Assembly: GCA_032622095.1 (NCBI GenBank) | Contig: CP136066.1 | Coordinates: 231,202,961-231,266,960, forward strand | Direction of reading: 5' to 3' | From: Siphonodentalium dalli | Lineage: Eukaryota; Mollusca; Scaphopoda; Gadilida; Siphonodentaliidae | Length of the DNA stretch: 64,000 bases | Shown: positions 1,539 to 49,462 of the stretch, piece after piece | Numbering within the stretch: position 1 is the first letter of the stretch | How the letters are laid out: the number at the start of each line of letters is the position of its first letter | The notes under the pieces: generated by a model | What the model was told of the DNA's origin: nothing | Databases searched by the model: none | Seen by the model: the letters and a program-made list of their open reading frames with translations, nothing else | Program-made: the position numbers and the translations under genes

Positions 1539-4500
1539 CGATCGGACATCGGGAACTTGTCATATTAATCGATACAAACCCAAACTAGAAATGTATTGGT
1601 AGAAATTTTGGCTGTTTGGTTGCCTGTCGTCGGATTTCTATAAATATTTTTGGCAGCAACCTTTTGCATGTTACAAGATAAATCTTTTACCAATCCGTGG
1701 ATACCAAATTTATTACGATTGGACGTCGGGAACATGACTTACAAATTGAAATAATCTCGAGGGGTATAAACCCCAAATAACCCCACTAGATAGATTTAGG
1801 AAGACAGTTTATTACGGTAGTTTATCATTGCGAGCTTTTAGCGGCATTTAGCATATTGTAAGATAAATCGTTTACCAAACAGTGTGTACCAGATGTACTA
1901 CGATTGGACGTCGGAAACATGACGTACTAATTGAAATAACCCCGAACAAACCCACTAGATATATTTCGGAAGACAGTTTATTACGGGAGTTTATCATTGC
2001 GCACTACAATACGGGCTGTGTTTAGATGACTTTTGTGGGTTTTCTATATACATTTTTAGCGGCAAATTTTTGCATGTGGCAAGTTCAGTCTCTGGCTGAT
2101 TCATGGGTATGAAATTTATTACGATCGGACATCGGGAACTTGTCATATTAATCGATACAATCCCAAACAAGAAATGTATTGGTCGAAAGTTTGGCTGTGT
2201 TTGCATGCCTGTCTTCGGATTTCTGTAAATATTTTTAACGGAAACCTTTTGTATTTTGAAAGATAAATCTTTACCAATCCGTGGATACCAAATTTATTAC
2301 GATTGGACCGGGAACATGACGTACTAATTGAAATAATCTCGAGGGGTATAAACCCCAAATAAACCCACTAGATATATTTCGGAAGACAGTTTATTACGGT
2401 AGTTTATAATTGCGCGCTACAATACGGTCGAAAGTTTGGCTGTGTTTGAATGCCTGTCGTCGGATTTCTAATCTCGAGGGGTATAAACCCTAAATAACCC
2501 CACTATATATATTTCGGAAGACAGTTTATTACGAGAGTTTATCATTGCGCACTAAAATACGGGTTGTGTTTAGGTGACTTTTGTGGGTTCTCTATAAATC
2601 ATTTTAATGGCAATTTTTTGGATGTGGCAAGTTCAGTCTCTGACCGATTCATGGGTATGAAATTTATTACGATCGTACATCGGGAACTTCTCATATTAAT
2701 TGATAGAAACCCAAACAAGAAATGTATTGGTCGAATGTTTGGCTGTGTTTGAATGCCTGTCGTCGGATTTCTATAAATATTTGGAACGACAACGTTTTGC
2801 TTTTTGCAAGATAAATCTTTTACCAATCCGCGAATACCAAATATATTACGATTGGACGTCGGGAACATGACGTGCTAATTGAAATAATCTCGAGGGGTAT
2901 AAGCCCCAAATAACCCCACTATATATATATATATATTTCGGAAGACAGTTTATCATTGCGCGCTACAATACAGTCGAAAGTTTGGCTGTGTTTGAATGCC
3001 TGTCGTCGGATTTCTGTAAATATTTTTAAAGGCATCCATTTGCATTTTGCAAGATAAATCTTTTACCAATCCGTAGATACCAAATTTTACGATTGGTCAG
3101 GGAACATGACGTACTAATTGAAATAATCTCGAGTGGTATAAACCCCAAATAACCCCACTAGATATATTTCGGAAGACAGTTTATCACGGGAGTTTATCAT
3201 TACGCACTACAATACGGGCTGTGTTTCGGCGACTTTTGTGGCTTTTCTATAAACATTTTTATTTGCAAATTTTGCATGTTGCATGATCAGTCTCTGTCTG
3301 ATTCATGGGTATGACATATATGATGATCGGACATCGGGAAGTTGTCATATTAATCGATAAAAACCCAAACTAGAAATGTATTGGGCGAAAGGTTGGCTGT
3401 GTTTGAATGCCTGTTGTCGAATTTCTATAAATATTTTAGCGGCAACGTTTTGCATGTTGCAAGATAAATCTTTTACCAATCCGTGAATATAAAACTTATT
3501 ACGGTTGTACGTCGGTAACATGACGTACTAATTGAAATAATCTCGAGGGGTATATAAACCTCAAATAACCCCACTAGATATATTTCGGAAGACAGTTTAT
3601 TAAGGTAGTTTATCATTCCGAACTACAATATGGTCGAAAGTTTGGTTGTGTTTGAATGCCTGTCGTCGGATTTATATAAATATTTTTAAGGCATCCTTTT
3701 GCATGTTGCAAGATACATCTTGTACCAATCAGTGGATGCCAAATTTATTACGATTGGACGTTGGGAAAATGACGTACTAATTTAAATAATCTCTAGGGGT
3801 ATAAACCCCAAATAACCCCACTAGATATATTTCGGAAGACAGTTTATTACGGGAGTTTATCATTGCGCACTACAATACGGGCTGTGTTTAGGTGACTTTT
3901 GTGGCTTTTCTATAAACAGTTTTAGCGGCAAATTTGTGCATGTTGCACGTTAGTCTCTGTCCGATTCACGGGTATGGAAATTATAACGATCGGACATCGG
4001 GAACTTGGTATATTAATCGATACAAACCCAAACTAGAAATGTATTTGTCGAAAGTTTGGCTGTGTTTGAATGCCTGTCGTCGAATTTCTATGAACATTTT
4101 AGCGGCAACGTTTTGCATGTTGCAAGATAAATCTTTTACCAATTCGGGAATATAAAACTTATTACGGTTGGACGTCGGTAACATGACGTACTAATTGAAA
4201 TAATCTCGAGGGGTATAAACCTCAAATAACCCCACTAGATATATTTCGGAAAACGGTTTATTACGAAGTTTATCATTGCGAACTACAATATGGTCGAAAG
4301 TTTGGTTGTGTTTGAGAGCCTGTCATCGTATTTATATAAATATTTTTAAAGGCATCCTTTTGCATGTTGTAACATAGATCTTTTACAAATCAGTGGATAC
4401 CAAATTTATTATGATCGGACGTCGGGAAAATGACGTACTAATTTAAATAATCTCGAAGGGTATAAACCCAAAATAACCCCACTAGATATATTTCGGAAGA

Positions 4501-6302
4501 CAGTTTATTACGGGAGTTTATCATTCCGAACTACAATATGGTCGAAAGTTTGGTTGTGTTTTAACGACAACCTTTCGCACTTTGCAAGATAAATCTTTTA
4601 CAAATCCGTGGATACCAAATTTATTACGATTGGACGTCGGGAACATGACGTACTAATTGAAATAATCTCGAGGGGTGTAAACCCCAAAAAAACCACACTA
4701 GATATATTTCAGAAGACTGTTTATTACGGGAGTTTATCATTGCGCACTACAATACGGTCGAAAGTTTGGCTGTGTTTGAATGCATGTCGTCGGATGTCTA
4801 TAAACATTTTTGATGGCAACCTTCTGCTTTTTCCAAGACAAATCTTTTACCAATCTGTGGATACCAAATTTATGGCGATTGGATCGGGGACATGGCGTAC
4901 TAATTGAAATAATCTCGAGGGATATAAGCCCTAAATAACTCAACTAGATATATTTCGGAAGAGTGTTTATTACGGGAGTTTATCATGGCGCACTAAAATA
5001 CGGGCTTTGTTTAGATGACTTTGGTGGGTTTTCTATCAACATTTTTAGCTGCAGCTTTATGTATGTTGCCAGCTCAGTCTGGCCGATTTATGGCTATGAA
5101 ATTTATTACGATCGGACATCGAGAACTTGTCATATTAATCGATACAAATCCAAACTACAAATTATTATCGAATGTTTGGCTGTGTTTGCATGCCTGTCGT
5201 CGGATTTCTGTTAATATTTTTAACGACAACCATTCGCACTTTGCAAGATAAATCTTTTACAAATCCGTGGATACCAAATTTATTTCGATTGGACTTCGGC
5301 AACATGACGTACTAATTGAAATAATCTCGAGGGGCATAAACCCCAAAAAACACACTAGATATATTTCGAAAGACAGTTTATTACGCGAGTTTATCATTGC
5401 GCACTACAATACGATCGAACGTTTGGCTGTGTTTGAATGCCTGTCGTCGGATTTCGAATCTCGAGGGGTATATGCCCTAACTAACCCCACTAGATATATT
5501 TCGAAAGACAGTTTATTACGGGAGTTTATCATTGCGCACTGCAATACGGGCCGTGTTTAGGTAACCTTTGTGGGTTTTCTATAAACATTTTAGCTGCAGA
5601 TTTTTGTACGTTGCAAGTTCAGTCACGGGTATGAAATTGAAAACGATCGGACATCGTGAACTTGTCATATTAATCGATACAAATCCAAACAACAAATATA
5701 TTGGTCGAAAGTTTGGTTGTGTTTGCATGCCTGTCATCGGATTTCTATAAATATTTTTAGCAGCAACCTTTTGGGATTTTTCAAGACAAATCTTTTACCA
5801 ATCCGTGGATACTAAATTTATTACGATTGGACCGGGAACATGACGTACTTATTGAAATAATCTCGAGGGGTATAAACCCCATATAACCCCACTATATATA
5901 TTTCGGTTTATTACGGGAGTTTATTATTGCGCACTATAATACGGGCTGTGTTTAGGTGATTTTTGTGGGTTTTTTATAAACATTTTAGCGGCAGATTTTG
6001 TGCGTTGCAAGTTCAGTCTCTTGCCGATTCATGGGTATGAAATTGATTACGATCGGACATTAGGAACTTGTCATATTAATCGATACAAATCCAAACTACA
6101 AATATATTGATCGAAAGTTTGGTTGTGTTTGAATGCCTGTCGTCGGATTTCTATAAATATTTTTAACGGCAACCTTTTGCATTTTGCAAGATAAATCTTT
6201 TACCAATCCATGGATACCAAACTTATTACGATTGGACCGGGAACATGACGTACTAATTGAATTTCGGAAGACAGTTTATTACGGGAGTTTATCATTGCGC
6301 AC
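1539..6302. repeat. Diverged left edge of the array
   Basis: A and B halves are recognisable throughout, but lengths vary and substitutions, deletions and partial halves are frequent, with no regular higher-order period. Parts of it, especially about 4300-5750, are near copies of about 44200-45800. Divergence at array edges fits the usual view that edges escape homogenisation. The segment ends in the target site of the hAT-like insertion. Confidence 0.85.
6295..6302. repeat. Left 8-bp target duplication TTGCGCAC
   Basis: TTGCGCAC stands here and again at 9319-9326, directly flanking the inserted element. The uninterrupted satellite reads TTGCGCAC at this place, and the paralogous empty site at 47567-47574 reads TTGCGTAC. 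Confidence 0.9.
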
Positions 6303-6545
6303 CAGGGGCGGCGGAGCCGGGGGGGCACAGGGGGGCACGTGCCCCCCCACTTTTTTCCCCAATTATGGGTACATAATCTTCCAATACTAAATACATTGGA
6401 GAAAATAATTTTTGGTTCCCAAGAAAACATTCCATTAGTAGACAAATGTGTTTAATCTTATCAGTTATGCCACTATGGCTAGCAAGATAGATAGTTAATC
6501 CCTTGGTCAGTATTTATGGGAGGCCCTTTTCACATTTATTATTTA

Positions 6546-6725
6546 TTTGCGCTTAAGCGCAAATATTTGCACTTAAGCACAAATCATTTGCGCTTAAGCG
6601 TAAATCATTTGCGCTTAAGCGCAAATCATTTGCGCTTAAGCGCAAATATGTGTCTATCAATTTATTTGCGCTTAAGCTCAAATCATTTGCGCTTAAGCGC
6701 AAATCATTTGCGCTTAAGCGCAAAT
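6546..6725. repeat. Left array of eight 18-bp palindromes
   Basis: Eight copies of the self-complementary word TTTGCGCTTAAGCGCAAA or one-to-two-base variants, mostly separated by a few A/T bases. A spacer with TATGTGTCTATCAATTTA sits between copies five and six. Each copy could form its own small hairpin or bind a symmetric dimer. Confidence 0.9.
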
Positions 6726-7309
6726 ACCTAACACTCCCTTACTTCCCTCTGATTGTGAATGATTGAGTCCATCTCATACTGAGGCATAGTATATTATGAT
6801 GGGCCCATAGTAATAGCCCCATACAGACTCGAAGTTGAAGAAAAAACATATTTCCATATGCCTATCAGCATCTCTGTCCCTGGTGTCCCAGGAATTGGTG
6901 TCTCACTCCCAGAGCTCTAGTATATTTTATTAAAGGGATATCTCCTGCACAGATATACCGTATACCATTTCTATGGCCATAAAAAGGGAATTAGGGGTTA
7001 CCGGGGGGCTTGCTTCCTTCATATTGTGTACTTATTGACTTGAAATAGGGGAAAAAACCCTATTTTCATATTATCAGCATCCCTGTCCAGAAGAATGTGT
7101 GTCTCCATCACAGAGATCAAGTATATTTTATGAATGAGACATATCCTGCACAGATCTATACCATTTCCATGTCATAAAAGGGATCTAGGGTTACTGGGGG
7201 ATTGCTTCCCTCATATGGTGGGCCTACCGGTATATAGACTTGAGTGATGTGTTTAGGCCTGTGCCATTTAAAATTAATTCAGGGGGGAATCAATGAATAT
7301 TAATTTTTA

Positions 7310-7488
7310 TTTGCGCTTAAGCGCAAATCATTTGCACTTAATCGAAAATATGATCTATTTGCGCTTAAGCGCAAATGAATTGCGCTTAAGCGCAAATGAT
7401 TTACGCTTAAGCGCAAATATTTGCGCTTAAGCGCAAATGATAGAGGTTATTTGCGCTTAAGCGCAAATATTTGCGCTTAAGCGTAAAT
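7310..7488. repeat. Right array of eight 18-bp palindromes
   Basis: Eight further copies of the TTTGCGCTTAAGCGCAAA palindrome, some with one to three changes, arranged as a rough mirror of 6546-6725. It leads directly into the right inverted end of the same element. Confidence 0.9.
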
Positions 7489-7584
7489 AAATAATAAATG
7501 TGAAAAGGGCCTCCCATAAGTATTGACACTGTGTCTGAGTAATTGCCCTCTGGGAATTTAACTACAGACGTTGAGTTCTTTGTA

Positions 7585-8341
7585 GAGCTCAGGTCTTCTG
7601 GGGGGCACCATCATAGCCACAGAGAAGACAAAATGCTTGATTTTCAGAAGGAGGAAGCCAAAAGTTCACCCTCAGTTTTTCCTTGAAGATAATCTCTTGG
7701 ATCTGGTTAACGAATATACCTATCTCGGAATGACGGGGTAGCTGGGAATTCGATATTCAAAAGTCTGGAGTCATTTGGCTTGACGCTTGACTATACCCTC
7801 CGACATTACTAACAACAAGCCTCTAATTAACAAGCTTGTAAAGTCATTTAAACGCTAGCTTCGTGAAAATCACACTGAAAACTTCAGAACAAGTATGCGC
7901 GATGGTGTTTCAAAAACTGGTAAAAATAAATTAAGAACATATCGACTTTTTAAAAGAGATATTGTCCTAGAACCTTATCTCTTAAATACAGCGTCGCTAG
8001 CTGACCGCTCAACATTTACATGTCTAAGAATAAGTAATCATTCTCTTGCCATTGAAAAGGGTCGTCACGCCCAACCACCGATTCCTTTAGCCAGAAGATT
8101 ATGTGTTTTGTGTAATAACGAAGCCATCGACGATGAGAGGCATTTCCTAATTGATTGTCCAACATTTCTTCCTATACCGAATGAACTCATTAAAATTATG
8201 GATGACAATTTTATCAATTTTCGATTGAGGAGTAGATTGGACCAACTCACACATATATTAGCCAATGACACAGCTCAAATATGCTCCCAAATCTGCAACG
8301 TAGTCAAGCGGTTATTCGAGGCCAGATCACAGTTAAACTAG
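7585..8341 (+). pseudogene. Decayed C-terminal part of a non-LTR reverse transcriptase
   Basis: About 7600-7735 translates to an RT thumb-like stretch with EKTKCLIF and NEYTYLGMT, ended by a stop. After an internal gap the frame resumes near 7810, crosses a TAG, and stays open from 7895 to 8341 (148 codons). The open part contains RTYRLFKRD, ISNHSLAIEKGR and a zinc-binding pattern C-x2-C-x9-H-x4-C. The intact RT at 20491-22902 has the same order of motifs and the same zinc spacing, so both belong to related elements. Stop codons, a deletion and lack of the catalytic core make this a dead 5'-truncated copy lying inside the hAT-like element. Confidence 0.85.
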
Positions 8342-8407
8342 ACAAATTATGTGTGTTGAATCATGTAACATAACTCACTCTATACAGATAAGAATATACG
8401 CAATTAA

Positions 8408-8459
<52 letters not shown>

Positions 8460-8598
8460 GATATTATCACTATTATTCAATGTATGTAATGTCAATATAT
8501 TGTATGATGTCACATGATACACTGTTAATATTATTATACATGGCAACCTGTCCCTATAATGGGACGTCTTTTGCTGAATAAATATATCTATCTATCTA
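8342..8598 (+). mobile_element. 3' tail of the decayed non-LTR element
   Basis: This follows the RT pseudogene. It includes a long AT run and ends with GCTGAATAAATATATCTATCTATCTA: a polyadenylation-like AATAAA followed by a short TATC repeat. Microsatellite-like 3' tails of this kind are common in animal non-LTR retrotransposons. The end point is inferred from the tail. Confidence 0.65.
8409..8457. repeat. AT dinucleotide run
   Basis: A nearly pure (AT)n microsatellite of about 48 bases within the 3' region of the decayed RT element. Confidence 0.95.
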
Positions 8599-9227
8599 GC
8601 CATGTCTTGGATGCAGCAGCTTGTCTAATTAAAATCACATTCACCATACCAATCAAAGGTTTAAATTTGAGTGTCTTCAATAAAAGTGCAAACCTGTGGT
8701 TTGGCAGGTATACAATTTCATGCCAAGGTGGTCAAACTCCTGATATCATGAGATCACTTGCTATATACAATATCAGTTGATGCTGAGTATTCATTGGAAT
8801 AACTTGACTATGATTTTTATCAACTCAGCTAATTCGTTATTACCGAGAAATAAGAAGAGTTAGAATAATTATTTTCTACATGAAGTTTACTGTGTACTTG
8901 CAAGTGTTTGTGTACATATATATTATAGTGTTATTTAATATTCAAAGTTACTTGTGATTATTGTTTCTTCGATATCAACGGTTGTCGTATGTGGAGTGAA
9001 TTGGATTATACAGTACAGTGTATACTAATTTCATCATAACATTTATGTAGGTCATCTTTCACACATTGGCTGCAAAAATAAGTGAGTAGCAGAGTAGTAT
9101 CATTTAAACTCTTTCTTATGTTCTACCTCCATAATGGTACATGCTGTAGCCATGAATAACATCATACTAAACAATCTTTGCGCTGGCGCATATTGCAACA
9201 GTTTTCAATTCATTCATGTAGTATTTG
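8599..9227. other. Interior of the hAT-like element, nothing recognised
   Basis: AT-rich sequence without a convincing frame or known repeat. A 73-codon frame starting at 8559 begins inside the RT tail and shows no recognisable domain. Confidence 0.5.
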
Positions 9228-9282
9228 AAAAAAAATGACGTATTTGAAAACAAATGACGTATTTGAAAAAAAATGACGTGCC
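9228..9282. repeat. Short tandem repeat near the right end of the hAT-like element
   Basis: About three copies of an 18-base unit around GACGTATTTGAAAA, leading into GACGTGCCCCCCC. Subterminal repeats of this sort often serve as transposase binding sites in hAT elements; that role is inferred here. Confidence 0.75.
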
Positions 9283-9318
9283 CCCCCCCCCACTTTTTTG
9301 TAGCTTCCGCCGCCCCTC

Positions 9319-9326
9319 TTGCGCAC
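9319..9326. repeat. Right 8-bp target duplication TTGCGCAC
   Basis: Exact partner of 6295-6302. The satellite resumes immediately after it with TATAATACGGGCTGTG. Confidence 0.9.
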
Positions 9327-12300
9327 TATAATACGGGCTGTGTTTGGGTGACTTTTGAGGGGGTTTTTATAAACATTTTAAAAAGAAAATTTGTGTGTGC
9401 TGCAAGTTCAGTCTCTGGCCGATTCGTGGGTATGAAATTTATTACTATCGGACATCGGATACATGTCATATTAATCGATACAAACCCAAACTAGAAATGT
9501 ATTGGTCGAAAGTTTGACTGTGTTTGAATACCTGTCATCGGATTTCTATAAATATTTCCGGGGCAACGTTTTGAATGTTGTAAGATAAAACTTTTACCAG
9601 TCCGTAGATATAACATTTATTACGATTGGACGTCGGGAACATCACGTACTAATTGAAATAATCTCGAGGGGTATAAACATCAAATAACCCCACTAGATAT
9701 ATTTCGGAAGACAGTTTATTACGGGAGTTTATCATTGCGCATTTCTGTAAATATTTTTAACGGCAACCTTTTGCATATATTTCAAGATAAATCTTTTACC
9801 AATCCATGGATACCAAAGTTTTTACGATTGGACGTCGGGAACATAACGTACAAACTGAAACCCCACTAGATATATTTCGGAAGACAGTTTATTACGGGAG
9901 TTTATCATTGCGCACTACAATACGGGCTGTGTTTAGGTGATTTTGTGGGTTTTCTATAAACATTTATACCTGTTGCATGTTCAGTCTCTGTCCGATTCAT
10001 GGGTATGAAATTTATGACGATCCGACATCGGGAACTTGTCATATTAAGCGATACAAACCCAAACTAGAAATGTATTGGTCGAAAGTTTGGCTGTGTTTGA
10101 ATGATTGTCGTCGGATTTCTAGAAATATTATTAACGGCAACCTTTTGGATTTTCCAAGATAAATCTTTTACCAATCCGTGGATACCAAATTTATTACGAT
10201 TGGACCGGGAACATGACGTACTTATTGAAATAATCTCGAGGGGTATAAACCCCATATAACCCCACTATATATATTTCGGAAGACAGTTTATTACGGGAGT
10301 TTATTATTGCGAAGTACAATACAGGCTGTGTTTAGGTGACTTTTGAGGGTTTTCTATAAACATTTATACCTGTTGCATGTTCAGTCGCTGTCCGATTCCC
10401 CATGGGTATGACATTTATGACGATCGGACGTCGGGAACTCGTCATATTAAGCGATACAAACCCAAACTAGAAATGTATTGGTCGAAAATTTGGCTGTGTT
10501 TGAACGCCTGTCGTCGGATTTCTATAAATATTTAGCGGCAACGTTTTGTCTGTTGAAAGATAAAACTTTTACCAATCCGTGGATATACAATTTATTACGA
10601 TTGGACGTCGGGAATATGACGTACTAATTGAAATAATGTCTAGGGGTATAAACCTCAAATAACCCCACCAGATATATTTCGGAAGACAGTTTATTACAGG
10701 AGTTTATCATTGCGCACTACAATACGGGATGTGTCTAGGTGACTTTTGTGGGTTTTCTATAAATGTTTTAGTAGCAACTTTTGGGATATGGCAAGGACAG
10801 TCTATGGCCGATTCATGGGTATTAAAGATATTACGATCAGACATCAGGAACTTTTGGATGTGGCAAGCTCAGTCTCTGGCTGATTCATGGGTATGAAATT
10901 TATTACGATCGGACATCTGGAACTTGTCATATTAATCGATACAAACCCAAATAAGAAATGTATTTAGCCGCAATCTTTTGCATTTTGCAAGATAAATCTT
11001 TTAATAATCCGCGGATACCAAATTTATTACGATTGGACCGGGAACATGACGTACTAATTGAAATAATCTCGAGGGGTATAAACCCCAAATAACCCCACTA
11101 GATATATTTCGGAAGACAGTTTATTACGGGAGTTTATCATTGCGCACTACAATACTGGCTGTGTTTAGGTGACTTTTGTGGGTTCTCTATAATTAATTTT
11201 AATGGCAAATTTTTGGATGTGGCATGTTCAGTCTCTGGCCGATTGATGCGTATGGAATTTATTACGATCGGACATCCGTTCTGAAATTGTCATATTAATC
11301 GATAGAAACCCAAACAAGAAATGTATTGGTCGAAAGTTTGGCTGTGTTTGAATGCCTGTTGTCGGATTTCAATAAATATTTTGAACGGCAACGTTTTGCT
11401 TTTTGCAAGATAAATCTTTTACCAATCCGTTGATACCAAATATATTACGATTGGACGCCGTGAACATGACGTACTAATTGAAATAATCTCGAGGAGTATA
11501 AGCCCCAAATAACCCCACTAGATTTATTTCGGAAGACAGTTTATTGCGGGAGTTTATCATTGCGCACTACAATACGAGCTGTGTGTATGTGACTTTTGTG
11601 GGTTCTCTATAAATAATTTTAATGGCAAATTTTTGGATGTGGCATGTTCTGTCTCTGGCCGATCGATGGGTATGAAATTTATTACGATCGGACATCCGCT
11701 CTGGAAATTGTCATATTAATCGATAGAAACCCAAACAAGAAATGTATTGGTCGAAAGTTTGGCTGTGTTTGAATGCCTGTTGTCGGATTTCAATAAATAT
11801 TTGAACGGCAACGTTTTGCCTATTGCAAGATAAATCTTTTACCAATCCGTTGATAACAAATATATTACGATTGGACGTCGTGAACATGCCGTAATAATTT
11901 AAATAATCTTCAGGGATATAAACTCCAAATAACCCCACTATAGATATATTTCGGAAGACAGTTTATTACTGGAGTGTATCATTGCGCACTACACAATACG
12001 GGCTGTGTTTAGGTGACTTTTGTCGGTTCTCTATAAATAAATTTAATGGCAAATGTTTGGTTGTGGCAAGTTCAGTCTCTGGCCGATTGATGGGTAGGAA
12101 ATTTATTACGATCGGACATCCGTTCTGGAGCTTGTCATATTAATCGTTAGAAACCCAAACAAGAAATGTATTGGTCGAAAGTTGGGCTGTGTTTGAATGC
12201 CTGTCGTCGAATTTCTATAAACATTTTAGCTGCAACGTTTTGAAATAATCTCGAGGGGTATAAACCTCAAATAACCCCACTAGATATATTTCGGAAGACA

Positions 12301-13010
12301 GTTTATTACGGAAGTTTATCATTGCGAACTACAATATGGTCGAAAGTTTGGTTGTGTTTGAATGCCTGTCGTCGGATTTCTATAAATATTTTTAACGGCA
12401 TCCTTTTGCATGTTGCAAGATAGATCTTTTACCAATCAGTGGATACCAAATTTATTACGATTGGACGTCGGGAAAATGACGTACTAACTTAAATAATCTC
12501 GAGGGGTATAAACCCCAAATAACCCCACTAGATATAATTCGGAAGACAGTTTATTACGGGAGTGTATCATTGCGCACTATACAATACGGGCTGTGTTTAG
12601 GTGACTTTTGTGGGTTCTCTATAAATAATTTTAATGGCAAATGTTTGGATGTGGCATGTTCAGTCTCTGGCCGATTGATGCGTATGAAATTTATTACGAT
12701 CGGACATCCGCTCTGGAAATTGTCATATTAATCGATAGAAACCCAAACAAGAAATTTATTGGTCGAAAGTTTGGCTGTGTTTGAATGCCTGTTGTCGGAT
12801 TTCAATAAATATTTTGAACGTCAACATTTTGCCTATTGCAAGATAAATCTTTTACCAATCCGTTGATAACAAATATATTACGATTGGATGTCGTGAACAT
12901 GACGTACTAATTGAAATAATCTCGAGGGGTATAAACCCCAAATAACCCCAATATAGATATATTTCGGAAGACAGTTTATTACGGAATTTATCATTGCGCA
13001 CTACATTACG
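9319..13010. repeat. Diverged array segment left of the 661-bp core
   Basis: Irregular A and B halves with local deletions. A hybrid module, an A half with an internal partial duplication (GGGATATGGCAAGG followed by GGATGTGGCAAGCTCAG), lies at about 10760-10960 and recurs at five other places in the array. Near 12235 a B half has lost its middle (CAACGTTTTGAAATAATC); the same deletion recurs at about 24848. Confidence 0.85.
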
Positions 13011-22902: not shown

Positions 22903-22916
22903 ACCAAATATACCAA

Positions 22917-36600: not shown

Positions 36601-39600
36601 TGTCTCTGGCCGATTGATGGGTATGAAATTTATTACGATCGGACATCCGCTCTGGAAATTGTCATATTAATCGATAGAAACCCAAACAAGAAATGTATTG
36701 GTCGAAAGTTTGGCTGTGTTTGAATGCCTGTTGTCGGATTTCAATAAATATTTGAATGGCAAAGTTTTGCCTATTGGAAGATAATTTTTTTACCAATCTA
36801 TTGATACCAAACATATTACGATTGGACGTCGTGAACATGACGTAATAATTGAAATAATCTCGAGGGCTATAAACCCCAAATAACCCCACTAGATATATTT
36901 CGGAAGACAGTTTATTACGGGAGTGTATCATTGCGCACTACACAATACGGGCTGTGTTTAGGTGACTTTTGTGGGTTCTCTATAAATAATTTAAATGTCA
37001 ATTTTTTTGGTTGTGGCAAGTTCAGTCTCTGACCGATTGATGGGTATGAAATTTATTACGATCGGACATCCGTTCTGGAACTTGTCATATTAATCGTTAG
37101 AAACCCAAACAAGAAATGTATTGCTCGAAAGTTGGGCTGTGTTTGAATGCCTGTCGTCGAATTTCTATAAACATTTTAGCGTCAACGTTTTGCATGTTGC
37201 AAGATAAATCTTTTACCAATCCGGGAATATAAAACTTATTACTGTTGGACGTCGGTAACATGACTTACTAATTGAAATAATCTCGAAGGATATAAACCTC
37301 AAATAACCCCACTAGATATATTTCGGAAGACGGTTTATTACGGAAGTTTATCATTGCGAACTACAATATGGTCGAAAGTTTGGTTGTGTTTGAATGCCTG
37401 TCGCCGGATTTATATTGATATTTTTAACGGCATCCTTTTGCATGTTGCAAGCTACATCTTGTACCAATCAGTGGATGCCAAATTTATTACGATTGGACGT
37501 CGAGAAAATGACGTACTAATTTAAATAATCTCGAGGGGTATAAACCCCAAATAACCGCACTAGATATATTTCGGAAGACAGTTTATTACGGGAGTGTATC
37601 ATTGCGCACTACACAATACGGGCTGTGTTTAGGTGACATTTGTGGGTTCTCTATAAATAATTTAAATGGCAAATTTTTGGTTATGGCAAGTTCTGTCTCT
37701 GGCCGATTGATGGGTATGAAATTTATTACGATCGGACATCCGTTCTGGAACTTGTCATATTAATCGTTAGAAACCAATACAAGAAATGTATTGGTCGAAA
37801 GTTTGGCTGTGTTTGAATGCCTGTCGTCGAATTTCTATAAATATTTTGAACAGCACCGTTTTGTCTATTGCAAGATAAATCTTTTACCAATCCGTTGATA
37901 CCAAATATATTACGATTGGACGTCGTGAAAATTACGTACTAATTGAAATAATCTCGAGGGGTATAAACCCCAAATAACCCCACTATAGATATATTTCGGA
38001 AGACAGTTTATTACGGGAATTTATCATTGCGCACTACAATACGGGCTGTGTTTAGGTGACTTTTGTGGCTTTTCTATAAACAGTTTTAGCGGCAAATTTG
38101 TGCATGTTGCATGTTAGTCTCTGTCCGATTCACGGTTATGAAAATTATGACGATCGGACATCGGGAACTTGTCATATTAATCGATACAAACCCAAACTAG
38201 AAATGTATTGGTCGAAAGTTTGGCTGTGTTTGAATGCCTGTTGTCGAATTTCTATAAACATTTTAGCTGCAACGTTTTGCACGTTGCAAGATAAATCTTT
38301 TACCAATCCGGGAATATAAAACATATTACGGTTGGACGTCGGTAACATGACTTACTAATTGAAATAATCTCGAGGGGTATAAACCTCAAATAACCCCACT
38401 AGATATATTTCGGAAGACAGTTTATTACGGAAGTTTATCATTGCGAACTACAATATGGTCGAAAGTTTGGTTGTGTTTGAATGCCTGTCGTCGGATTTAT
38501 ATAAATATTTTTAACGGCATCCTTTTGCATGTTGCAAGATAGATCTTGTACCAATCAGTGGATAACAAATTTAATACGATTGGACGTCGGGAAAATGACG
38601 TACTAATTTAAATAATCTCGAGGGGTATAAACCCCAAATAACCCCACTAGATATATTTCGGAAGACAGTTTATTACGGGAGTGTATCATTGCGCACTACA
38701 CAATACGGCTGTGTTTAGGTGACTTTTGTGGGTTCTCTTTAAATAATTTTAATGGCAAATTTTTGGATGTGGCATGTTCTGTCTCTGGCCGATTGATGGG
38801 TATGAAATTTATTACGATCGGACATCCGCTCTGGAAATTGTCATATTAATCGATAGAAACCCAAACAAGAAATGTATTGGTCGAAAGTTTGGCTGTGTTT
38901 GAATGCCTGTTGTCGGATTTCAATAAATATTTGAATGGCAAAGTTTTGACTATTGGAAGATAAATTTTTTACCAATCTATTGATACCAAACATATTACGA
39001 TTGGACGTCGTGAACATGACGTAATAATTGAAATAATCTCGAGGGCTATAAACCCCAAATAACCCCACTAGATATAGTTCGGAAGACAGTTTATTACGGG
39101 AGTGTATCATTGCGCACTACACAATACGGGCTGTGTTTAGGTGACTTTTGTGGGTTCTCTATAAATAATTTAAATGTCAATTTTTTTGGTTTTGGCAAGT
39201 TCAGTCTCTGACCGATTGATGGGTATGAAATTTATTACGATCGGACATCCGTTCTGGAACTTGTCATATTAATCGTTAGAAACCCAAACAAGAAATGTAT
39301 TGCTCGAAAGTTGGGCTGTGTTTGAATGCCTGTCGTCGAATTTCTATAAACATTTTAGCGTCAACGTTTTGCATGTTGCAAGATAAATCTTTTACCAATC
39401 CGGGAATATAAAACTTATTACTGTTGGACGTCGGTAACATGACTTACTAATTGAAATAATCTCGAAGGATATAAACCTCAAATAACCCCACTAGATATAT
39501 TTCGGAAGACGGTTTATTACGGAAGTTTATCATTGCGAACTACAATATGGTCGAAAGTTTGGTTGTGTTTGAATGCCTGTCGCCGGATTTATATTGATAT

Positions 39601-42399
39601 TTTTAACGGCATCCTTTTGCATGTTGCAAGCTACATCTTGTACCAATCAGTGGATGCCAAATTTATTACGATTGGACGTCGGGAAAATGACGTACTAATT
39701 TAAATAATCTCGAGGGGTATAAACCCCAAATAACCGCACTAGATATATTTCGGAAGACAGTTTATTACGGGAGTGTATCATTGCGCACTACACAATACGG
39801 GCTGTGTTTAGGTGACATTTGTGGGTTCTCTATAAATAATTTAAATGGCAAATTTTTGGTTATGGCAAGTTCTGTCTCTGGCCGATTGATGGGTATGAAA
39901 TTTATTACGATCGGACATCCGTTCTGGAACTTGTCATATTAATCGTTAGAAACCAATACAAGAAATGTATTGGTCGAAAGTTTGGCTGTGTTTGAATGCC
40001 TGTCGTCGAATTTCTATAAATATTTTGAACAGCACCGTTTTGTCTATTGCAAGATAAATCTTTTACCAATCCGTTGATACCAAATATATTACGATTGGAC
40101 GTCGTGAAAATTACGTACTAATTGAAATAATCTCGAGGGGTATAAACCCCAAATAACCCCACTATAGATATATTTCGGAAGACAGTTTATTACGGGAATT
40201 TATCATTGCGCACTACAATACGGGCTGTGTTTAGGTGACTTTTGTGGCTTTTCTATAAACAGTTTTAGCGGCAAATTTGTGCATGTTGCATGTTAGTCTC
40301 TGTCCGATTCACGGTTATGAAAATTATGACGATCGGACATCAGGAACTTGTCATATTAATCGATACAAACCCAAACTAGAAATGTATTGGTCGAAAGTTT
40401 GGCTGTGTTTGAATGCCTGTTGTCGAATTTTTATAAACATTTTAGCTGCAACGTTTTGCACGTTGCAAGATAAATCTTTTACCAATCCGGGAATATAAAA
40501 CATATTACGGTTGGACGTCGGTAACATGACTTACTAATTGAAATAATCTCGAGGGGTATAAACCTCAAATAACCCCACTAGATATATTTCGGAAGACAGT
40601 TTATTACGGAAGTTTATCATTGCGAACTACAATATGGTCGAAAGTTTGGTTGTGTTTGAATGCCTGTCGTCGGATTTATATAAATATTTTTAACGGCATC
40701 CTTTTGCATGTTGCAAGATAGATCTTGTACCAATCAGTGGATAACAAATTTAATACGATTGGACGTCGGGAAAATGACGTACTAATTTAAATAATCTCGA
40801 GGGGTATAAACCCCAAATAACCCCACTAGATATATTTCGGAAGACAGTTTATTACGGGAGTGTATCATTGCGCACTACACAATACGGCTGTGTTTAGGTG
40901 ACTTTTGTGGGTTCTCTTTAAATAATTTTAATGGCAAATTTTTGGATGTGGCATGTTCTGTCTCTGGCCGATTGATGGGTATGAAATTTATTACGATCGG
41001 ACATCCGCTCTGGAAATTGTCATATTAATCGATAGAAACCCAAACAAGAAATGTATTGGTCGAAAGTTTGGCTGTGTTTGAATGCCTGTTGTCGGATTTC
41101 AGTAAATATTTGAATGGCAAAGTTTTGCATATTGGAAGATAAATTTTTTACCAATCTGTTGATACCAAACATATTACGATTGGACGTCGTAAACATGACG
41201 TAATAATTGAAATAATCTCGAGGGGTATAAACCCCAAATAACCCCACTAGATATATTTCGGAAGACAGTTTATTACGGGAGAGTATCATTGCGCACTACA
41301 CAATACGGGCTGTGTTTAGGTGACTTTTGTGGGTTCTCTATAAATAATTTAAATGGCAATTGTTTTGGTTGTGGCAAGTTCAGTCTCTGACCGATTGATG
41401 GGTATGAAATTTATTACGATCGGACATCCGTTCTGGAACTTGTCATATTAATCGTTAGAAACCCAAACAAGAAATGTATTGGTCGAAAGTTTGGTTGTGT
41501 TTGAATGCCTGTCGTCGGATTTCTATAAACATTTTAGCGTCAACGTTTTGCATGTTGTAAGATAAATCTTTTACCAATCCGGGAATATAAAACTTATTAC
41601 TGTTGGACGTCGGTAACATGACTTACTAATTGAAATAATCTCGAGGGATATAAACCTCAAATAACCCCACTAGATATATTTCGGAAGACGGTTTATTACG
41701 GAAGTTTATCATTGCGAACTACAATATGGTCGAAAGTTTGGTTGTGTTTGAATGCCTGTCGCCGGATTTATATAAATATTTTTAACGGCATCCTTTTGCA
41801 TGTTGCAAGCTACATCTTGTACCAATCAGTGGATGCCAAATTTATTACGATTGGACGTCGGGAAAATGACGTACTAATTTAAATAATCTCGAGGGGTATA
41901 AACCCCAAATAACCGCACTAGATATATTTCGGAAGACAGTTTATTACGGGAGTGTATCATTGCGCACTACACAATACGGGCTGTGTTTAGGTGACATTTG
42001 TGGGTTCTCTATAAATAATTTAAATGGCAAAGTTTTGGTTATGGCAAGTTCTGTCTCTGGCCGATTTATGGGTATGAAATTTATTACGATCGGACATCCG
42101 TTCTGGAACTTGTCATATTAATCGATAGAAACCCATACAAGAAATGTATTGGTCGAAAGTTGGGCTGTGTTTGAATGCCTGTCGTCGAATTTCTATAAAT
42201 ATTATGAACAGCAACGTTTTGTCTATTGCAAGATAAATCTTTTACCAATCCGTTGATACCAAATATATTACGATTGGACGTCGTGAAAATTACGTACTAA
42301 TTGAAATAATCTCGAGGGGTATAAACCCCAAATAACCCCACAAGATATATTTCGGAAGACAGTTTATTACGGAAGTTTATCATTGCGCACTACAATACG
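33693..42399. repeat. Array segment with 1086-bp and 2179-bp higher-order repeats
   Basis: A halves of one subtype start at 33693, 34779, 35865, 38044, 40223 and (next block) 42400. The first two spacings are 1086 and the next three about 2179. The 1086 unit is A-B-B'-A-B. The 2179 unit is two such units whose second half is a diverged version with GTTAGAAACC and CGCCGGATTTATAT variants. Copies within each class differ by few bases, so amplification is recent. Confidence 0.92.
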
Positions 42400-45300
42400 G
42401 GCTGTGTTTAGGTGACTTTTGTGGTGGCTTTTCTATAAACAGTTTTAGCGGCAAATTTGTGCATGTTGCATTTTAGTCTCTGTCCGATTCACGGGTATGA
42501 AAATTATAACGATCGGACATCGGGAATTTGGTATACAAACCCAAACTATAAATGTATTTGTCGAAAGTTTGGCTGTGTTTGAATGCCTGTCGTCGAATTT
42601 CTATAAATATTTTAGCTGCAACGTTTTGCATGTTGCAAGATAAATCTTTTACCAATCCGGAATATAAAACTTATTACAGTTGGACGTCGGTAACATGACT
42701 TACTAATTGAAATAATCTCGAGGGGTATAAACCTCAAATAACCCCACTAGATATATTTCAGAAGACGGTTTATTACGGAAGTTTATCATTGCGAACTACA
42801 ATATGGTCGAAAGTTTGGTTGTGTTTTAACGACAACCTTTCGCACTTTGCAAGATAAATCTTTTACAAATCCGTGGATACCAAATTTTGAGTGCCTGTCA
42901 TCGGATTTATATAAATATTTTTAACGGGATCCTTTTGCATGTTGTAACATAGATCTTTTACCAATCAGTGGATACCAAATTTATTACGATTGGACGTCGG
43001 GAATATGACGGACTAATTGATATAATCTCGAGGGGAATAAACCTCAAATAACCCCACCAGATATATTTCTGAAGACAGTTTATTACGGGAGTTTATCATT
43101 GCGCACTGCAATACGGGCTGTGTTTAGGTGACTTTTGTGGGTTTTCTATAAACATTTTAATGGCAGATTTGTGTACGTTGCAAGTTCAGTCTCTGGCCGA
43201 TTTATGGGTATGAAATTTATTACTATCGGACGTCGGGAAAATGAAGAACTAATTAAAATAATCTCAAGCGAGTGATATAAACCCCAAACAACTTCACTAT
43301 AGATATATTTCGGATGACAGTTTATTACAGGAGTTTATCATTGCGCACTACAATACGGGCTGTGTTTATATAGGTTATTTTTGTGGCTTTTCTATAACCA
43401 TTTTGGCGGCAAATTTGTGAATTTTGCACGTTGATTCAATTGCCGATTCATGGTTATGACATTTTTGACGATCGGACATCGGGAACTTGTCATATTAATC
43501 GATACAAACCCAAAGTAGAAATGTATTGGTCGAAAGTTTGGCTGTGTTTGAATGCCTGTTGTCGGATTTCTATAAATATTTTAATGGCAAACTTTTGACT
43601 GTTGCAAGATAAATCTTTTAGCAATCCGTGAATACCAAATTTATTACGATTGGATGTCGGGCACATGACGAACTAATTGAAATAATCTCGAGGGGTATAA
43701 TCCCCAAATAACACCACTATAGATATATTTCGGAAGACAGTTTATTACGGGAGTTTATAATTGCGCACTACAATACAGGCCGTGTTTAGGTGACTTTTGT
43801 GGTGGCTTTTCTATAAACAGTTTTAGCGGCAAATTTGTGCATGTTGCATTTTAGTCTCTGTCCGATTCACGGGTATGAAAATTATAACGATCGGACATCG
43901 GGAATTTGGTATATTAATCGATACAAACCCAAACTATAAATGTATTTGTCGAAAGTTTGGCTGTGTTTGAATGCCTGTCGTCGAATTTCTATAAATATTT
44001 TAGCTGCAACGTTTTGCATGTTGCAAGATAAATCTTTTACCAATCCGGAATATAAAACTTATTACAGTTGGACGTCGGTAACATGACTTACTAATTGAAA
44101 TAATCTCGAGGGGTATAAACCTCAAATAACCCCACTAGATATATTTCAGAAGACGGTTTATTACGGAAGTTTATCATTGCGAACTACAATATGGTCGAAA
44201 GTTTGGTTGTGTTTTAACGACAACCTTTCGCACTTTGCAAGATAAATCTTTTACAAATCCGTGGATACCAAATTTTGAGTGCCTGTCATCGGATTTATAT
44301 AAATATTTTTAACGGCATCCTTTTGCATGTTGTAACATAGATCTTTTACCAATCAGTGGATACCAAATTTATTATGATCGGACGTCGGGAAAATGACATA
44401 CTAATTTAAATAATCTCGAAGGGTATAAACCCAAAATAACCCCACTAGATATATTTCGGAAGACAGTTTATTACGGGAGTTTATCATTCCGAACTACAAT
44501 ATGGTCGAAAGTTTGGTTGTGTTTTAACGACAACCTTTCGCACTTTGCAAGATAAATCTTTTACAAATCCGTGGATACCAAATGTATTACGATTGGACGT
44601 CGGGAACATGACGTACTAATTGAAATAATCTCGAGGGGTGTAAACCCCAAAAAACCACACTAGATATCTTTCGGAAGACAGTTTATTACGGGAGTTTATC
44701 ATTGCGCATTACAATACGGTCGAAAGTTTGGCTGTGTTTTAATGCATGTCGTCGGATGTCTATAAACATTTCTGATGGCAACATTTTGCATTTTCCAAGA
44801 CAAATCTTTTACCAATCTGTGGATACCAAATTTATTGCGATTGGATCGGGGACATGGCGTACTAATTGAAATAATCTCGAGGGATATAAGCCCTAAATAA
44901 CTCCTCTAGATATATTTCGGAAGAGTGTTTATTACGGGAGTTTATCATTGCGCACTAAAATACGGGCTGTGTTTAGATGACTTTGGTGGGTTTTCTATCA
45001 ACATTTTTAGCTGCAGCTTTATGTATGTTGCCAGCTCAGTCTGGCCGATTTATGGCTATGAAATTTATTACGATCGGACATCGAGAACTTGTCATATTAA
45101 TCGATACAAATCCAAACTACAAATTATTATCGAAAGTTTTGCTGTGTTTGCATGCCTGTCGTCGGATTTCTGTTAATATTTTTAAAGACAACCATTTGCA
45201 CTTTGCAAGATAAATCTTTTACAAATCCGTGGATACCAAATTTATTTCGATTGGACTTCGGCAACATGACGTACTAATTGAAATAATCTCGAGGGGCATA

Positions 45301-48300
45301 AACCCCAAAAAACACACTAGATATATTTCGGAAGACAGTTTATTACGGGAGTTTATCATTGCGCACTATACAATACGGTCGAACGTTTGTCTGTGTTTGA
45401 ATGCCTGTCGTCGGATTTCTATATATAGTTCACCAATCAGTGGATACAAAGTTTATTACGATTGGACATCGGGAACATGACGGACTAATTGAAATAATCT
45501 CGAGGGGTATAAACCCCAAATAACCCCATTAGATATATTTCGGAAGACAGTTTATTACGGGAGTTTATCATTGCGCACTGCAATACGGGCTGTGTTTAGG
45601 TAACTTTTGTGGGTTTTCTATAAACATTTTAGCTGCAGATTTTTGTACGTTGCAAGGTCAGTCTCTGGCCGATTCACGGGTATGAAATTGAATACGATCG
45701 GTCATCGTGAACTTGTCATATTAATCGATACAAATCCAAACTACAAATATATTGGTCGAAAGTTTGGTTGTGTTTGCATGCCTGTCATCGGATTTCTATA
45801 AATATCTTTAGCGGCAACCTTTGGGATTTTCCAAGACAAATCTTCTACCAATCCGTGGATACCAAATTTATTACGATGGGACCGGGAACATGACGTACTT
45901 ATTGAAATAATCTCGAGGGGTATAAACCCCATATAACCCCACTATATATATTTCGGAAGACAGTTTATTACGGGAGTTTATTATTGCGCACTACAATACG
46001 GGTGACTTTTGTGGGTTTTCTATAAACATTTATACCTGTTGCATGTACAGTCTCTGGCCGATTCATGGGTGTGAAATTTATGACGATCCGACATCGGGAA
46101 CTTGTCATATTAAGCGATACAACCCCAAACTAGAATGTATCGGTCGAAAGTTTGGCTGTGTTTGAATGCTTGTCGTCGGATTTCTATAAATATTTTTAAC
46201 GGCAACCTTTTGGATTTTCCAAGACAAATCTTTTACCTATCCGTGGATACCAAATTTATTACGATTGGACCGGGAACATGACGTACTTATTGAAATAATC
46301 TCGAGGGGTATAAACCCCATATAACCCCACTATATATATTTCGGAAGACAGTTTATTACGGGAGTTTATTATTGCGCACAATACGGGCTGTGTTTAGGTG
46401 ACTTTTGTGGGTTTTCTATAAACATTAATACCTGTTGCATGTTCAGTCTCTGGCCGATTCATGGGTATGAAATTTATGACGATCGGACATCGGGAACTCG
46501 TCATATTAAGCGATACAAACCCAAACTAGAAATGTATTGGTCGAAAGTTTGGCTGTGTTTGAACGCCTGTCGTCGGATTTCTATAAATATTTAGCGGCAA
46601 CGTTTTGTGTGTTGCAAGATAAAACTTTTACCAATCCGTGGATATACAATTCATTACGATTGGACATCGGTAACATGACGTACTAATTGAAATAATGTCC
46701 AGGGGTATAAACCTCAAATAACCCCACCAGATATATTTCGGAAGACAGTTTATTACGGGAGTTTATCATTGCGCACTACAATACGGGCTGTGTTTAGGTG
46801 ACTTTTGTGGGTTTTCTATAAATGTTTTAGTAGCAACTTTTGGGATATGGCAAGGTCAGTCTATGACCGAATCATGGGTATTAAAGATATTACGATCAGA
46901 CATCAGGAACTTTTGGATGTGGCAAGCTCAGTCTCTGGCTGATTCATGGGTATGAAATTTATTACGATCGGACATCTGGAACTTGTCATATTAATCGATA
47001 CAAACCCAAACAAGAAATGTATTTAGCCGCAATCTTTTGCATTTTGCAAGATAAATCTTTTAACAATCCGCGGATACCAAATTTATTACGATTGGACCGG
47101 GAACATGACGTACTAATTGAAATAATCTCGAGGGGTATAAACCCCATATAACCCCACTATATATATTTCGGAAGACAGTTTATTACGGGAGTTTATTATT
47201 GCGCACTACAATACGGGCTGTGTTTAGGTGAATTTTGTGGGTTTTCTATAAACATTTTAGAGGCAGATTTTTGTACGTTGCAAGTTCAGTCTCTGGCCGA
47301 TTCATTAGTATGAAAATGATTACGATCGGACATTAGGAACTTGTCATATTAATCGATACAAATCCAAACTACAAATATATTGGTCAAAAGTTTGGTTGTG
47401 TTTGAATGCCTGTCGTCGGATTTTTATAAATATTTTAACGGTAACCTTTTGCATTTTGCAAGATAAATCTTTTAACAATCCATGGATACCAAAATTATTA
47501 CGATTGGACCGGGAACATGACGTACTAATTGAATTTCGGAAGACAGTTTATTACGGGAGTTTATCATTGCGTACTATAATACAGGCTGTGTTTGGGTGAC
47601 TTTTGAGGGGGTTTTATAAACATTTTTAGCGGCAAATTTGTGTGTGCTGCAAGTTCAGTCTCTGGCCGATTCGTGGGTATGAAATTTATTACTATCGGAC
47701 ATCGGATACATGTCATATTAATCGATACAAACCCAAACCCGATTCATGGGTATGAAATTTATGACGATCGGACATCGGGAACTCGTCATATTAAGCGATA
47801 CAAACCCAAACTAGAAATGTATTGGTCGAAAGTTTGGCTGTGTTTGAACGCCTGTCGTCGGATTTCTATAAATATTTAGCGGCAACGTTTTGTGTGTTGC
47901 AAGATAAAACTTTTACCAATCCGTGGATATACAATTCATTACGATTGGACATCGGTAACATGACGTACTAATTGAAATAATGTCCAGGGGTATAAACCTC
48001 AAATAACCCCACCAGATATATTTCGGAAGACAGTTTATTACGGGAGTTTATCATTGCGCACTACAATACGGGCTGTGTTTAGGTGACTTTTGTGGGTTTT
48101 CTATAAATGTTTTAGTAGCAACTTTTGGGATATGGCAAGGTCAGTCTATGGCCGATTCATGGGTATTAAAGATATTACGATCAGACATCAGGAACTTTTG
48201 GATGTGGCAAGATCAGTCTCTGGCTGATTCATGGGTATGAATTTTTTTACGATCTGACATCTGGAACTTGTCATATTAATCGATACAAACCCAAACAAGA

Positions 48301-49462
48301 AATGTATTTAGCCGCAATCTTTTGCATTTTGCAAGATAAATCTTTTAACAATCCGCGGATACCAAATTTATTACGATTGGACCGGGAACATGACGTACTA
48401 ATTGAAATAATCTCGAGGGGTATAAACCCCATATAACCCCACTATAAATATTTCGGAAGACAGTTTATTACGGGAGTTTATTATTGCGCACTACAATACG
48501 GGCTGTGTTTAGGTGACTTTTGTGGGTTTTCTATAAACATTTATACCTGTTGCATGTTCAGTCTCTGGCCGATTCATGGGTATGAAATTTATGACAATCG
48601 GACATCGGGAACTCGTCATATTAAGCGATACAAACCCAAACTAGAAATGTGTTGGTCGAAAGTTTGGCTGTGTTTGAACGCCTGTCGTCGGATTTCTATA
48701 CATATTTAGCGGCAACGTTTTGTGTGTTGCAAGATAAAACTTTTAACAATCCGCGGATACCAAATTTATTACGATTGGCCCGGGAACATGACGTACTAAT
48801 TGAAATAATCTCGAGGGGTATAAACCCCAAATAACCCCACTAGACATATTTCGGAAGACAGTTTATTACGGGAGTTTATCATTGCGCAATATAATACGGG
48901 CTGTGTTTGGGTGACTTTTGTGGGGGTTTTTATAAACGATTTGGCGTCGGGAAAATGACGTACTAATTAAAATAATCTCGAGGGGTATAAACCCCAAATA
49001 ACCCCACTATAGATATATTTCGGAAGACAGTTTATTACGGGAGTGTATCATTGCGCACTACAATGCGGGCTGTGTTTAGGTGACTTTTGTGGGTCCTCTA
49101 TAAATAATTTTAATGGCAAATTTTTGGATGTGGCAAGTTCAGTCTCTGGCCGATTGATGGGTATGAAATTTATTACGATCGGACATCCGTTCTGGAACTT
49201 GTCATATTAATCGATAGAAACCCAAACAAGAAATGTATTGGTCGAAAGTTTGGTTGTGTTTGAATGCCTGTCGTCGGATTTCTATAAATATTTTTAACGG
49301 CAACGTTTTACATGTTGCAAGATAAATCTTTTACCAATCCGTGGATACAAAATTGGTGGTTTTCTATAAACATTTTTAGTGGCAGATTTTTGTATGTTGC
49401 AAGTTCAGTCTCTGGCCGATTCATGGGTATGAAATTTATTACGACCTGACATCGGGAACTTG
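42400..49462. repeat. Diverged right edge of the array
   Basis: Irregular A and B halves. About 42400-42990 is repeated at 43779-44370 (offset near 1380). About 44200-45800 is a near copy of the left edge around 4300-5750, and 47507-47640 is the uninterrupted counterpart of the hAT target site. The hybrid GGGATATGGCAAGG module occurs at about 46835 and 48120. The array stops after GACATCGGGAACTTG at 49462. Confidence 0.85.

What the first reader, a model, noticed from the sequence alone, without database searches (positions are those of the whole stretch)
1539..49462. Satellite monomer is an ancient duplication; lone half-monomers build the higher-order repeats
The roughly 420-bp monomer splits into A (178 bp) and B (240 bp), which align along nearly their whole length; B has about 55 extra bases. 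Deleting A exactly between GGCTGTG boundaries gives the lone B' halves. The 661, 1086, 1942 and 2179 bp repeats are therefore different strings in a two-letter alphabet. This suggests unequal exchange occurs at half-monomer register as well as full register.
Basis: seen in the sequence. Interest (0 to 1): 0.75.

Follow-up and report, generated by a model that had tools for sequence, protein, structure and literature searches.

The report
Transposon-borne satellite with hybrid half-repeats
A 48,000-base block of repeated DNA near a chromosome end is the overgrown repeat core of a mobile element; its repeat unit is an old doubled sequence, and some of its halves have recombined with each other, which is a clear but not unprecedented way for such repeats to diversify.

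Summary
The array (window 1539-49462, three insertions) is real. Halves A (179 bp) and B (237) are paralogues: 137/179 aligned bases identical, local score 28 SD above shuffles. In a tree of 539 full halves, A and B separate without error. The 661, 1086, 1942 and 2179 bp repeats are strings of halves: ABB', (AB)2B', a damaged (AB)4B', and two (AB)2B' blocks. Two corrections. The BB' doublet is not an exact GGCTGTG-to-GGCTGTG deletion: in 38/38 matched window copies the join lies 13 bp before GGYTGTG, at non-homologous points, so it looks like one ancestral deletion, later copied. Half-register exchange is shown instead by hybrid A/B halves joined at paralogous positions: 4 of 54 junction types, 0.42 expected, about three independent events. 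It resembles satellite-bearing HINE or Tetris elements but fails the Helentron end layout; its superfamily is unknown.

The parts
1539..6302 (+). A/B array, left part; begins at A109, a start shared with several other C6 arrays
6303..9318 (.). hAT-like insertion: inverted ends AGGGGCGGCGGA..., 8-bp target duplication TTGCGCAC; holds 21-bp palindromic repeats and an ORF (7859-8341) without Pfam match
   Evidence: (sequence); the name hAT rests on TSD length and end sequence, recalled
9319..20130 (+). A/B array, includes the 661-bp ABB' higher-order repeat at about 13423-20035
20130..22914 (-). non-LTR retrotransposon insertion (limits approximate); ORF with RVT_1 (E 9.6e-43)
   Evidence: 'non-LTR' recalled from the look of the protein
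22915..23633 (+). short stretch of A/B array between two insertions
23634..24517 (.). short inverted-end insertion (GGCTGCGGACACACG...)
   Evidence: sequence
24518..49462 (+). A/B array with 1942-, 1086- and 2179-bp higher-order repeats
13423..20035 (+). 661-bp HOR = A B B', 10 units; at a 1983-bp lag units 1-2 are identical to units 4-5
34105..41726 (+). 1086/1092-bp HOR = A B A B B'; pairs of them form the 2179-bp HOR
26892..28831 (+). 1942-bp HOR = (AB)4 B' with one A partly duplicated (A126->A55) and one B missing its first 41 bp (A165->B42)
31009..31252 (+). hybrid half: A1-113 joined to B114-237 at paralogous position (diagnostic sites 25 A : 2 B, then 1 A : 5 B)
43116..43357 (+). second copy of the same hybrid half (25:2, then 0:6)
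49463..49614 (+). 3' end of the host mobile element, ending ...ACACAATGTTCGCGCCATG; the 3' hairpin present in many other copies is missing here

Best explanation
The satellite is the expanded tandem-repeat core of a dispersed DNA element bounded by an imperfect 24-bp inverted repeat (5' CATGACGCGAACATTGCGTTAAAA ... TTTTAACACAATGTTCGCGTCATG 3'), with the repeats close to its 3' end. An ancestral half of about 180 bp was duplicated and one copy (B) gained about 58 bp; this dimer was already in the element when it spread. In one insertion lineage, now present near the C6 end, on C4 and at two other C6 places, a 168-bp non-homologous deletion (B236-A166) made a B-B' doublet. Unequal exchange in the AB register then changed the number of AB dimers between doublets, giving (AB)nB' higher-order repeats, which were amplified block by block. 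Less often, A paired with B and crossed over at matching positions, making hybrid halves, some of which were amplified in tandem. Shown: homology, dispersal, element ends, junctions, hybrids. Inferred: unequal exchange as the process, the order of events, and mobility by a transposase in trans.
For: Homology and its age. HOR strings. BB' join: 38 in the window and 73 in other loci, seen in 15 of 30 sequences (some of them adjoining pieces of one array) and in none of the 13 dispersed loci L017-L029. Hybrids: A113->B114 (8 places), A27->B28 and A33->B35 (L021), B69->A70 (L014); 4 of 54 types vs 0.42 expected, P 0.0008 (random targets) or 0.0017 (shuffled targets); 4 of 60 and 3 of 45 at other penalties. 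Element: same 3' end in copies with different flanks; 70 3' ends and 42 5' ends genome-wide within 3 mismatches, 0 in reversed-pattern controls; exact empty site in a 165-bp satellite. Five array-bearing copies lie between paired ends 8,040-24,215 bp apart (hand-paired; 32 of 42 5' ends could be paired).
Against: The 5' end of the window's own element was not found. No transposase or Rep gene was recognised, but only parts of the large copies were read and only three of their ORFs were scanned. L021's two hybrids probably share one origin; three events of about 53 would give P near 0.01 (hand estimate's mean). Most junction types are not half-register: 39 of 62 unmerged types begin and end in the same half type. 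10 of 42 5' ends have no 3' partner in the lists. Only 29 fetched loci plus the window were decomposed, and the first genome search scored 27 of 125 candidates. A/B labels come from HMMs built on window halves.
Confidence: 0.78

Rival explanations
1. One reading: homologous unequal exchange in half register itself removed A and made every BB' doublet.
For: The deleted length (168 bp) is close to one A half; hybrids show that A and B can pair.
Against: 107 of 111 BB' joins are B235/236->A167/168. By the alignment A167-179 is homologous to B191-203, not to B's end, so the join is not at matching positions. The older-looking form ACAATACGG|TCGAA (37 exact matches; the derived ACAATATGG form 51) shares only GG at the two break points (read from the sequence).
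Confidence: 0.12
2. Satellite first: AB arrays existed as ordinary satellite DNA and were captured by the element, or the element inserted beside them.
For: Satellite capture by mobile elements is discussed in the literature (recalled). Among the loci examined the long arrays belong to one lineage. L019 and L029 each lack one of the two common flanks.
Against: Of the 13 dispersed loci L017-L029, 12 share the left flank and start at B1 (not L029) and 12 share the right flank (not L019); many C6 arrays share the limits A109 and about A128.
Confidence: 0.15
3. Amplification by rolling circles of excised repeat DNA (eccDNA) rather than unequal crossing over.
For: Two of three 661 units are 100% identical at a 1,983-bp lag, and shared array limits fit block insertion.
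Against: Sequence alone cannot tell the two apart; HOR lengths graded by whole AB dimers fit unequal exchange equally well.
Confidence: 0.25
4. The host element is a Helentron/HINE (Helitron2) non-autonomous element.
For: Tandem repeats inside, a 3' palindrome, no fixed target duplication; Helitron Rep genes are abundant in the genome (151 matches).
Against: Inverted repeats are strictly terminal at both ends and the palindrome lies inside them, unlike the Helentron/Helitron2 layout (against 45, 58, 60); insertion sites are not TT; none of the about 150 listed Rep hits falls between the 18 large paired ends (by inspection; 457 candidates, 150 scored).
Confidence: 0.2

Closest known systems
Tetris foldback transposon and TIR-220 satellite, Drosophila virilis (PMC4079207, abstract read)
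   Different: Tetris repeats lie in its TIRs; here the TIR is 24 bp and the repeats lie near one end; the unit here is a dimer of diverged halves with HORs
Cg_HINE elements of oyster Crassostrea gigas (PMC7492417, abstract and two sections read)
   Same: Dispersed non-autonomous elements carrying short satellite-like arrays, 3' palindrome, no TSD
   Different: HINE have 11-12 bp subterminal repeats, a microsatellite and T-rich targets; here 24-bp terminal repeats, other targets, paired ends up to about 32 kb apart
Hybrid monomers of human alpha satellite (PMC8336445, passages read)
   Same: Monomers made of a prefix of one and a suffix of another monomer
   Different: Here the recombining units are the two diverged halves of one dimeric monomer in a transposon-borne satellite

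Membership tests
Helentron/HINE/Helitron2 | 3' inverted repeat subterminal, about 20-60 bp from the 3' end and upstream of the hairpin | tested here: not met
   3' inverted repeat is terminal; hairpin lies upstream of it; definition from passages
Helentron/HINE/Helitron2 | Insertion in TT / T-rich target without TSD | tested here: inconclusive
   Bases beside the element T/T, G/G, G/C, T/G, C/G, A/T with 0-6 shared bases; no TT preference seen, TSD not fixed (7 insertions printed, two of them near-copies of one)
Helentron/HINE/Helitron2 | Rep/helicase protein in an autonomous partner | tested here: inconclusive
   Rep hits exist in the genome but none listed lies between paired ends; most large copies were not read
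TIR DNA transposon with fixed TSD (hAT, Maverick, etc.) | Fixed-length target duplication | tested here: not met
   Shared bases 1, 3, 6, 0 in four independent copies with both ends in one piece; two more with ends in separate pieces show 0 and 2 (by eye)
Satellite DNA with higher-order repeats | Multi-monomer units more alike between units than monomers within a unit | tested here: met
   661 units 97-98%, 2179 lag 95.0-99.7%, while window A-A and B-B average 88.5-88.6%
Transposon-derived satellite | Same repeats inside dispersed copies with common element ends | tested here: met
   the 5' end of the window copy itself was not found

The most novel reading that the evidence does not exclude
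The host element belongs to an undescribed group of large DNA transposons with short terminal inverted repeats, a palindrome inside the 3' end and no fixed target duplication, which carries satellite dimers as part of its 3' end and seeds higher-order satellites at a chromosome end.
Probability: 0.2. Interest if true: 0.6.

Novelty: new variant of a known kind. Interest (0 to 1): 0.42.

Why it matters
It gives in one genome the whole series from a mobile element with one or two AB dimers, to short arrays, to a 48-kb array with higher-order repeats, with traceable junctions. Hybrid halves read at 33 diagnostic sites make it possible to test how diverged two repeats may be (about 70-76% identity) and still recombine.

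Tried and rejected
A first decomposition with a background state is meaningless outside the array because the background score was too low; the register test uses the junctions recomputed on array blocks. Those blocks leave out part of the inverted segment of L012 (3101-3666). Homology of the repeat to the element's 5' end: only an 11-base match, not above shuffles; rejected. Homology of the 3' flank to B86-215: 3 of 300 shuffles reach it; left open as a possible decayed half. Repeats inside A or inside B: none above shuffles. The sequence at L032:4686 was first taken as a possible 5' end of the element, but it is the end of another very abundant young element; rejected. Helentron membership: see membership test. 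Organism: a mollusc-type haemocyanin search found nothing, but nothing rang in the controls either, so the species stays unknown. Paper searches showed no listed title or abstract start that describes this repeat; they do not prove absence.

Rows dropped before counts: 1441 nhmmer hits were reduced to 744 non-overlapping halves; 205 of these at or below 85% coverage were left out of the tree; 7 of 61 junction types with net shift of 15 bp or less were left out of the register test.
Full report
1. The array. The window is G000:C6:231202961-231266960 in a 2.23-Gb genome of nine contigs; C6 is 233.5 Mb long, so the array lies about 2.2 Mb from the contig end. Between 1539 and 49462 the repeat boundaries (GGYTGTGTTT) run on the + strand; one near-match on the other strand (45193) is not a repeat boundary. 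Three insertions interrupt the array: 6303-9318 (inverted ends, 8-bp duplication TTGCGCAC), about 20130-22914 (a reverse-transcriptase ORF, RVT_1 E 9.6e-43) and 23634-24517. nhmmer finds 212 half-units in the array, 170 of them full.

2. Two homologous halves. Consensus A (179) and B (237) align over all of A with 137 of 179 identities; gaps in A are 15, 9 and 34 bp. The score is far outside 1000 dinucleotide shuffles (max 7.8 vs 71.0 global; 26.6 vs 83.4 local). In a FastTree tree of 221 A and 318 B full halves from the 30 sequences searched, the best split has no error, support 0.89. A-A between window and dispersed loci averages 86.0%, B-B 82.6%, A-B 68.6 to 75.5%. The duplication is therefore older than the dispersal of the copies.

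3. Higher-order repeats. 661 = B'AB (the same as ABB'), 1086/1092 = (AB)2B', 2179 = two such blocks, 1942 = (AB)4B' with one partly duplicated A and one truncated B. Each block holds one BB' doublet, and blocks differ by whole AB dimers. Identities: 97.0-98.3% between neighbouring 661 units and 96.8-100% at three-unit lag; 99.8% between the first two 1086 units but 92.9-95.2% between the later neighbours; 95.0-99.7% at the 2179 lag; 96.2% at 1942 over 1450 bp from 26892 and 92.2% from 24950.

4. The BB' join. Aligning 43 array blocks to a circular AB reference gave 287 jumps of more than 15 bp net shift, of 54 merged types. 111 jumps are the BB' join, 38 in the window and 73 elsewhere. 107 of them join B235/236 to A167/168, the other 4 lie within 3 bp. 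In 38 of 38 window cases matched by pattern the next GGYTGTG starts 13 bp downstream. By the alignment, A167-179 matches B191-203, so the two sides are not homologous. The form ACAATACGG|TCGAA shares GG with both parents; the ACAATATGG form common in the window differs by one base (exact forms 37 and 51). The join is absent from the 13 dispersed loci L017-L029 and from L011 and L014. One ancestral deletion, then copying, is the simplest reading.

5. Hybrid halves. Four of 54 junction types connect matching positions of A and B within 2 bp: A113->B114 (8 places in window, L002, L006, L009), A27->B28 and A33->B35 (both L021), B69->A70 (L014). Random targets give 0.42, P 0.0008; shuffled observed targets 0.48, P 0.0017. 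With jump penalties -9 and -18 the result is 4 of 60 (P 0.0018) and 3 of 45 (P 0.006). At the diagnostic sites (33 in all between positions 1 and 142) the switch is sharp, for example 25 A: 2 B then 0 A: 6 B, or 1 A: 11 B then 17 A: 0 B; the weakest, in L021, is 7:1 then 6:19. The two L021 hybrids probably have one origin, so I count about three events. In L002 two hybrid halves stand in tandem; L028 holds three tandem 207-bp halves of another fusion (A118->B150, not at matching positions), and L029 one.

6. The host element. Arrays at other places share one or both flanks with each other. The right flank ends at ...CGCGTCATG, after which the dispersed copies differ, apart from the pair L023/L024. 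Ten copies on C6 and C4, the window included (L001, L004, L007, L008, L010, L012, L013, L015, L016), continue with the same host sequence AAAAG(A/T)TCGA..., so they probably descend from one insertion. The distance from array end to element end is about 150-320 bp in most copies (152 in the window, 268 in L018) and 1-2.2 kb in L016, L023, L024, L028 and L029 (positions). Three loci with 461-bp copies (L038-L040, 99% identical) show both ends: CATGACACGAACATTGCATTAAAA and its inverted partner; L038 sits in a 165-bp satellite whose neighbouring units give the empty site CAACTGGTCC, with at most one T duplicated. Shared flank bases in other copies are 3, 6 and 0, and 0 and 2 for two copies read in separate pieces. 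Genome-wide there are 70 3' ends and 42 5' ends within 3 mismatches, with none in the reversed controls. Pairing them by hand (same strand, right order) places 32 of the 42 5' ends: 12 copies of 460-462 bp, two of 3,669 bp and 18 of 8.0-32.0 kb; five of the last (8,040, 13,863, 22,376, 22,319, 24,215 bp) hold arrays L021, L018, L017, L027 and L026. In the window copy the 3' hairpin is missing and no 5' end was found.

7. Relation to known systems. Growth of satellites from tandem repeats inside mobile elements is known (Tetris, abstract; oyster Cg_HINE, abstract and two sections). Hybrid monomers are known in alpha satellite (passages). Helentron and Helitron2 descriptions (passages) place the 3' inverted repeat inside, upstream of a hairpin; here it is terminal, so membership is not claimed. 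No long ORF was seen in the parts read, three short ones gave no Pfam match above cut-off, and none of the listed Rep hits lies between the large paired ends (by inspection; 150 of 457 candidates were scored).

8. Verdict. The mobile-element context is the main addition. Interest is moderate: the kind is known, the detail is unusually complete.

Noticed in passing
L034-L037; G000 C8:103927436 and many places: Another element, end CATCTTCGGAATGC..., has 40 scored copies at 99-100% identity among 1077 candidates: very abundant and young.
   Followed up: no
window 6541-7490: Arrays of a 21-bp palindromic unit ATTTGCGCTTAAGCGCAAATC inside the hAT-like insertion, in two separate blocks.
   Followed up: no
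L038 1-7001: A 165-bp satellite with 33 copies and a 461-bp mini-element copied together with a satellite block (two near-identical insertions 5,897 bp apart).
   Followed up: partly
L042 109-3777: 3.67-kb copy with the element's ends but, by tandem-repeat search, ACCAAGGTA-type palindromic repeats instead of an AB array.
   Followed up: partly
L007 1552-3465, L008 2642-4875, L012 2272-3661: Inverted segments of the array: mainly minus-strand halves between plus-strand halves, in three loci.
   Followed up: no
G000: 151 Helitron_like_N matches, seven of those listed in open frames above 2,500 codons.
   Followed up: no
window 634-1038 and 59756-60293: Other short tandem repeats of 209 and 179 bp outside the array.
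   Followed up: no
L020 2491-2757, corresponding to window 49463-49614: The flank after the array aligns to B86-215; 3 of 300 shuffles reach the score (L020 copy tested); perhaps a decayed half.
   Followed up: partly
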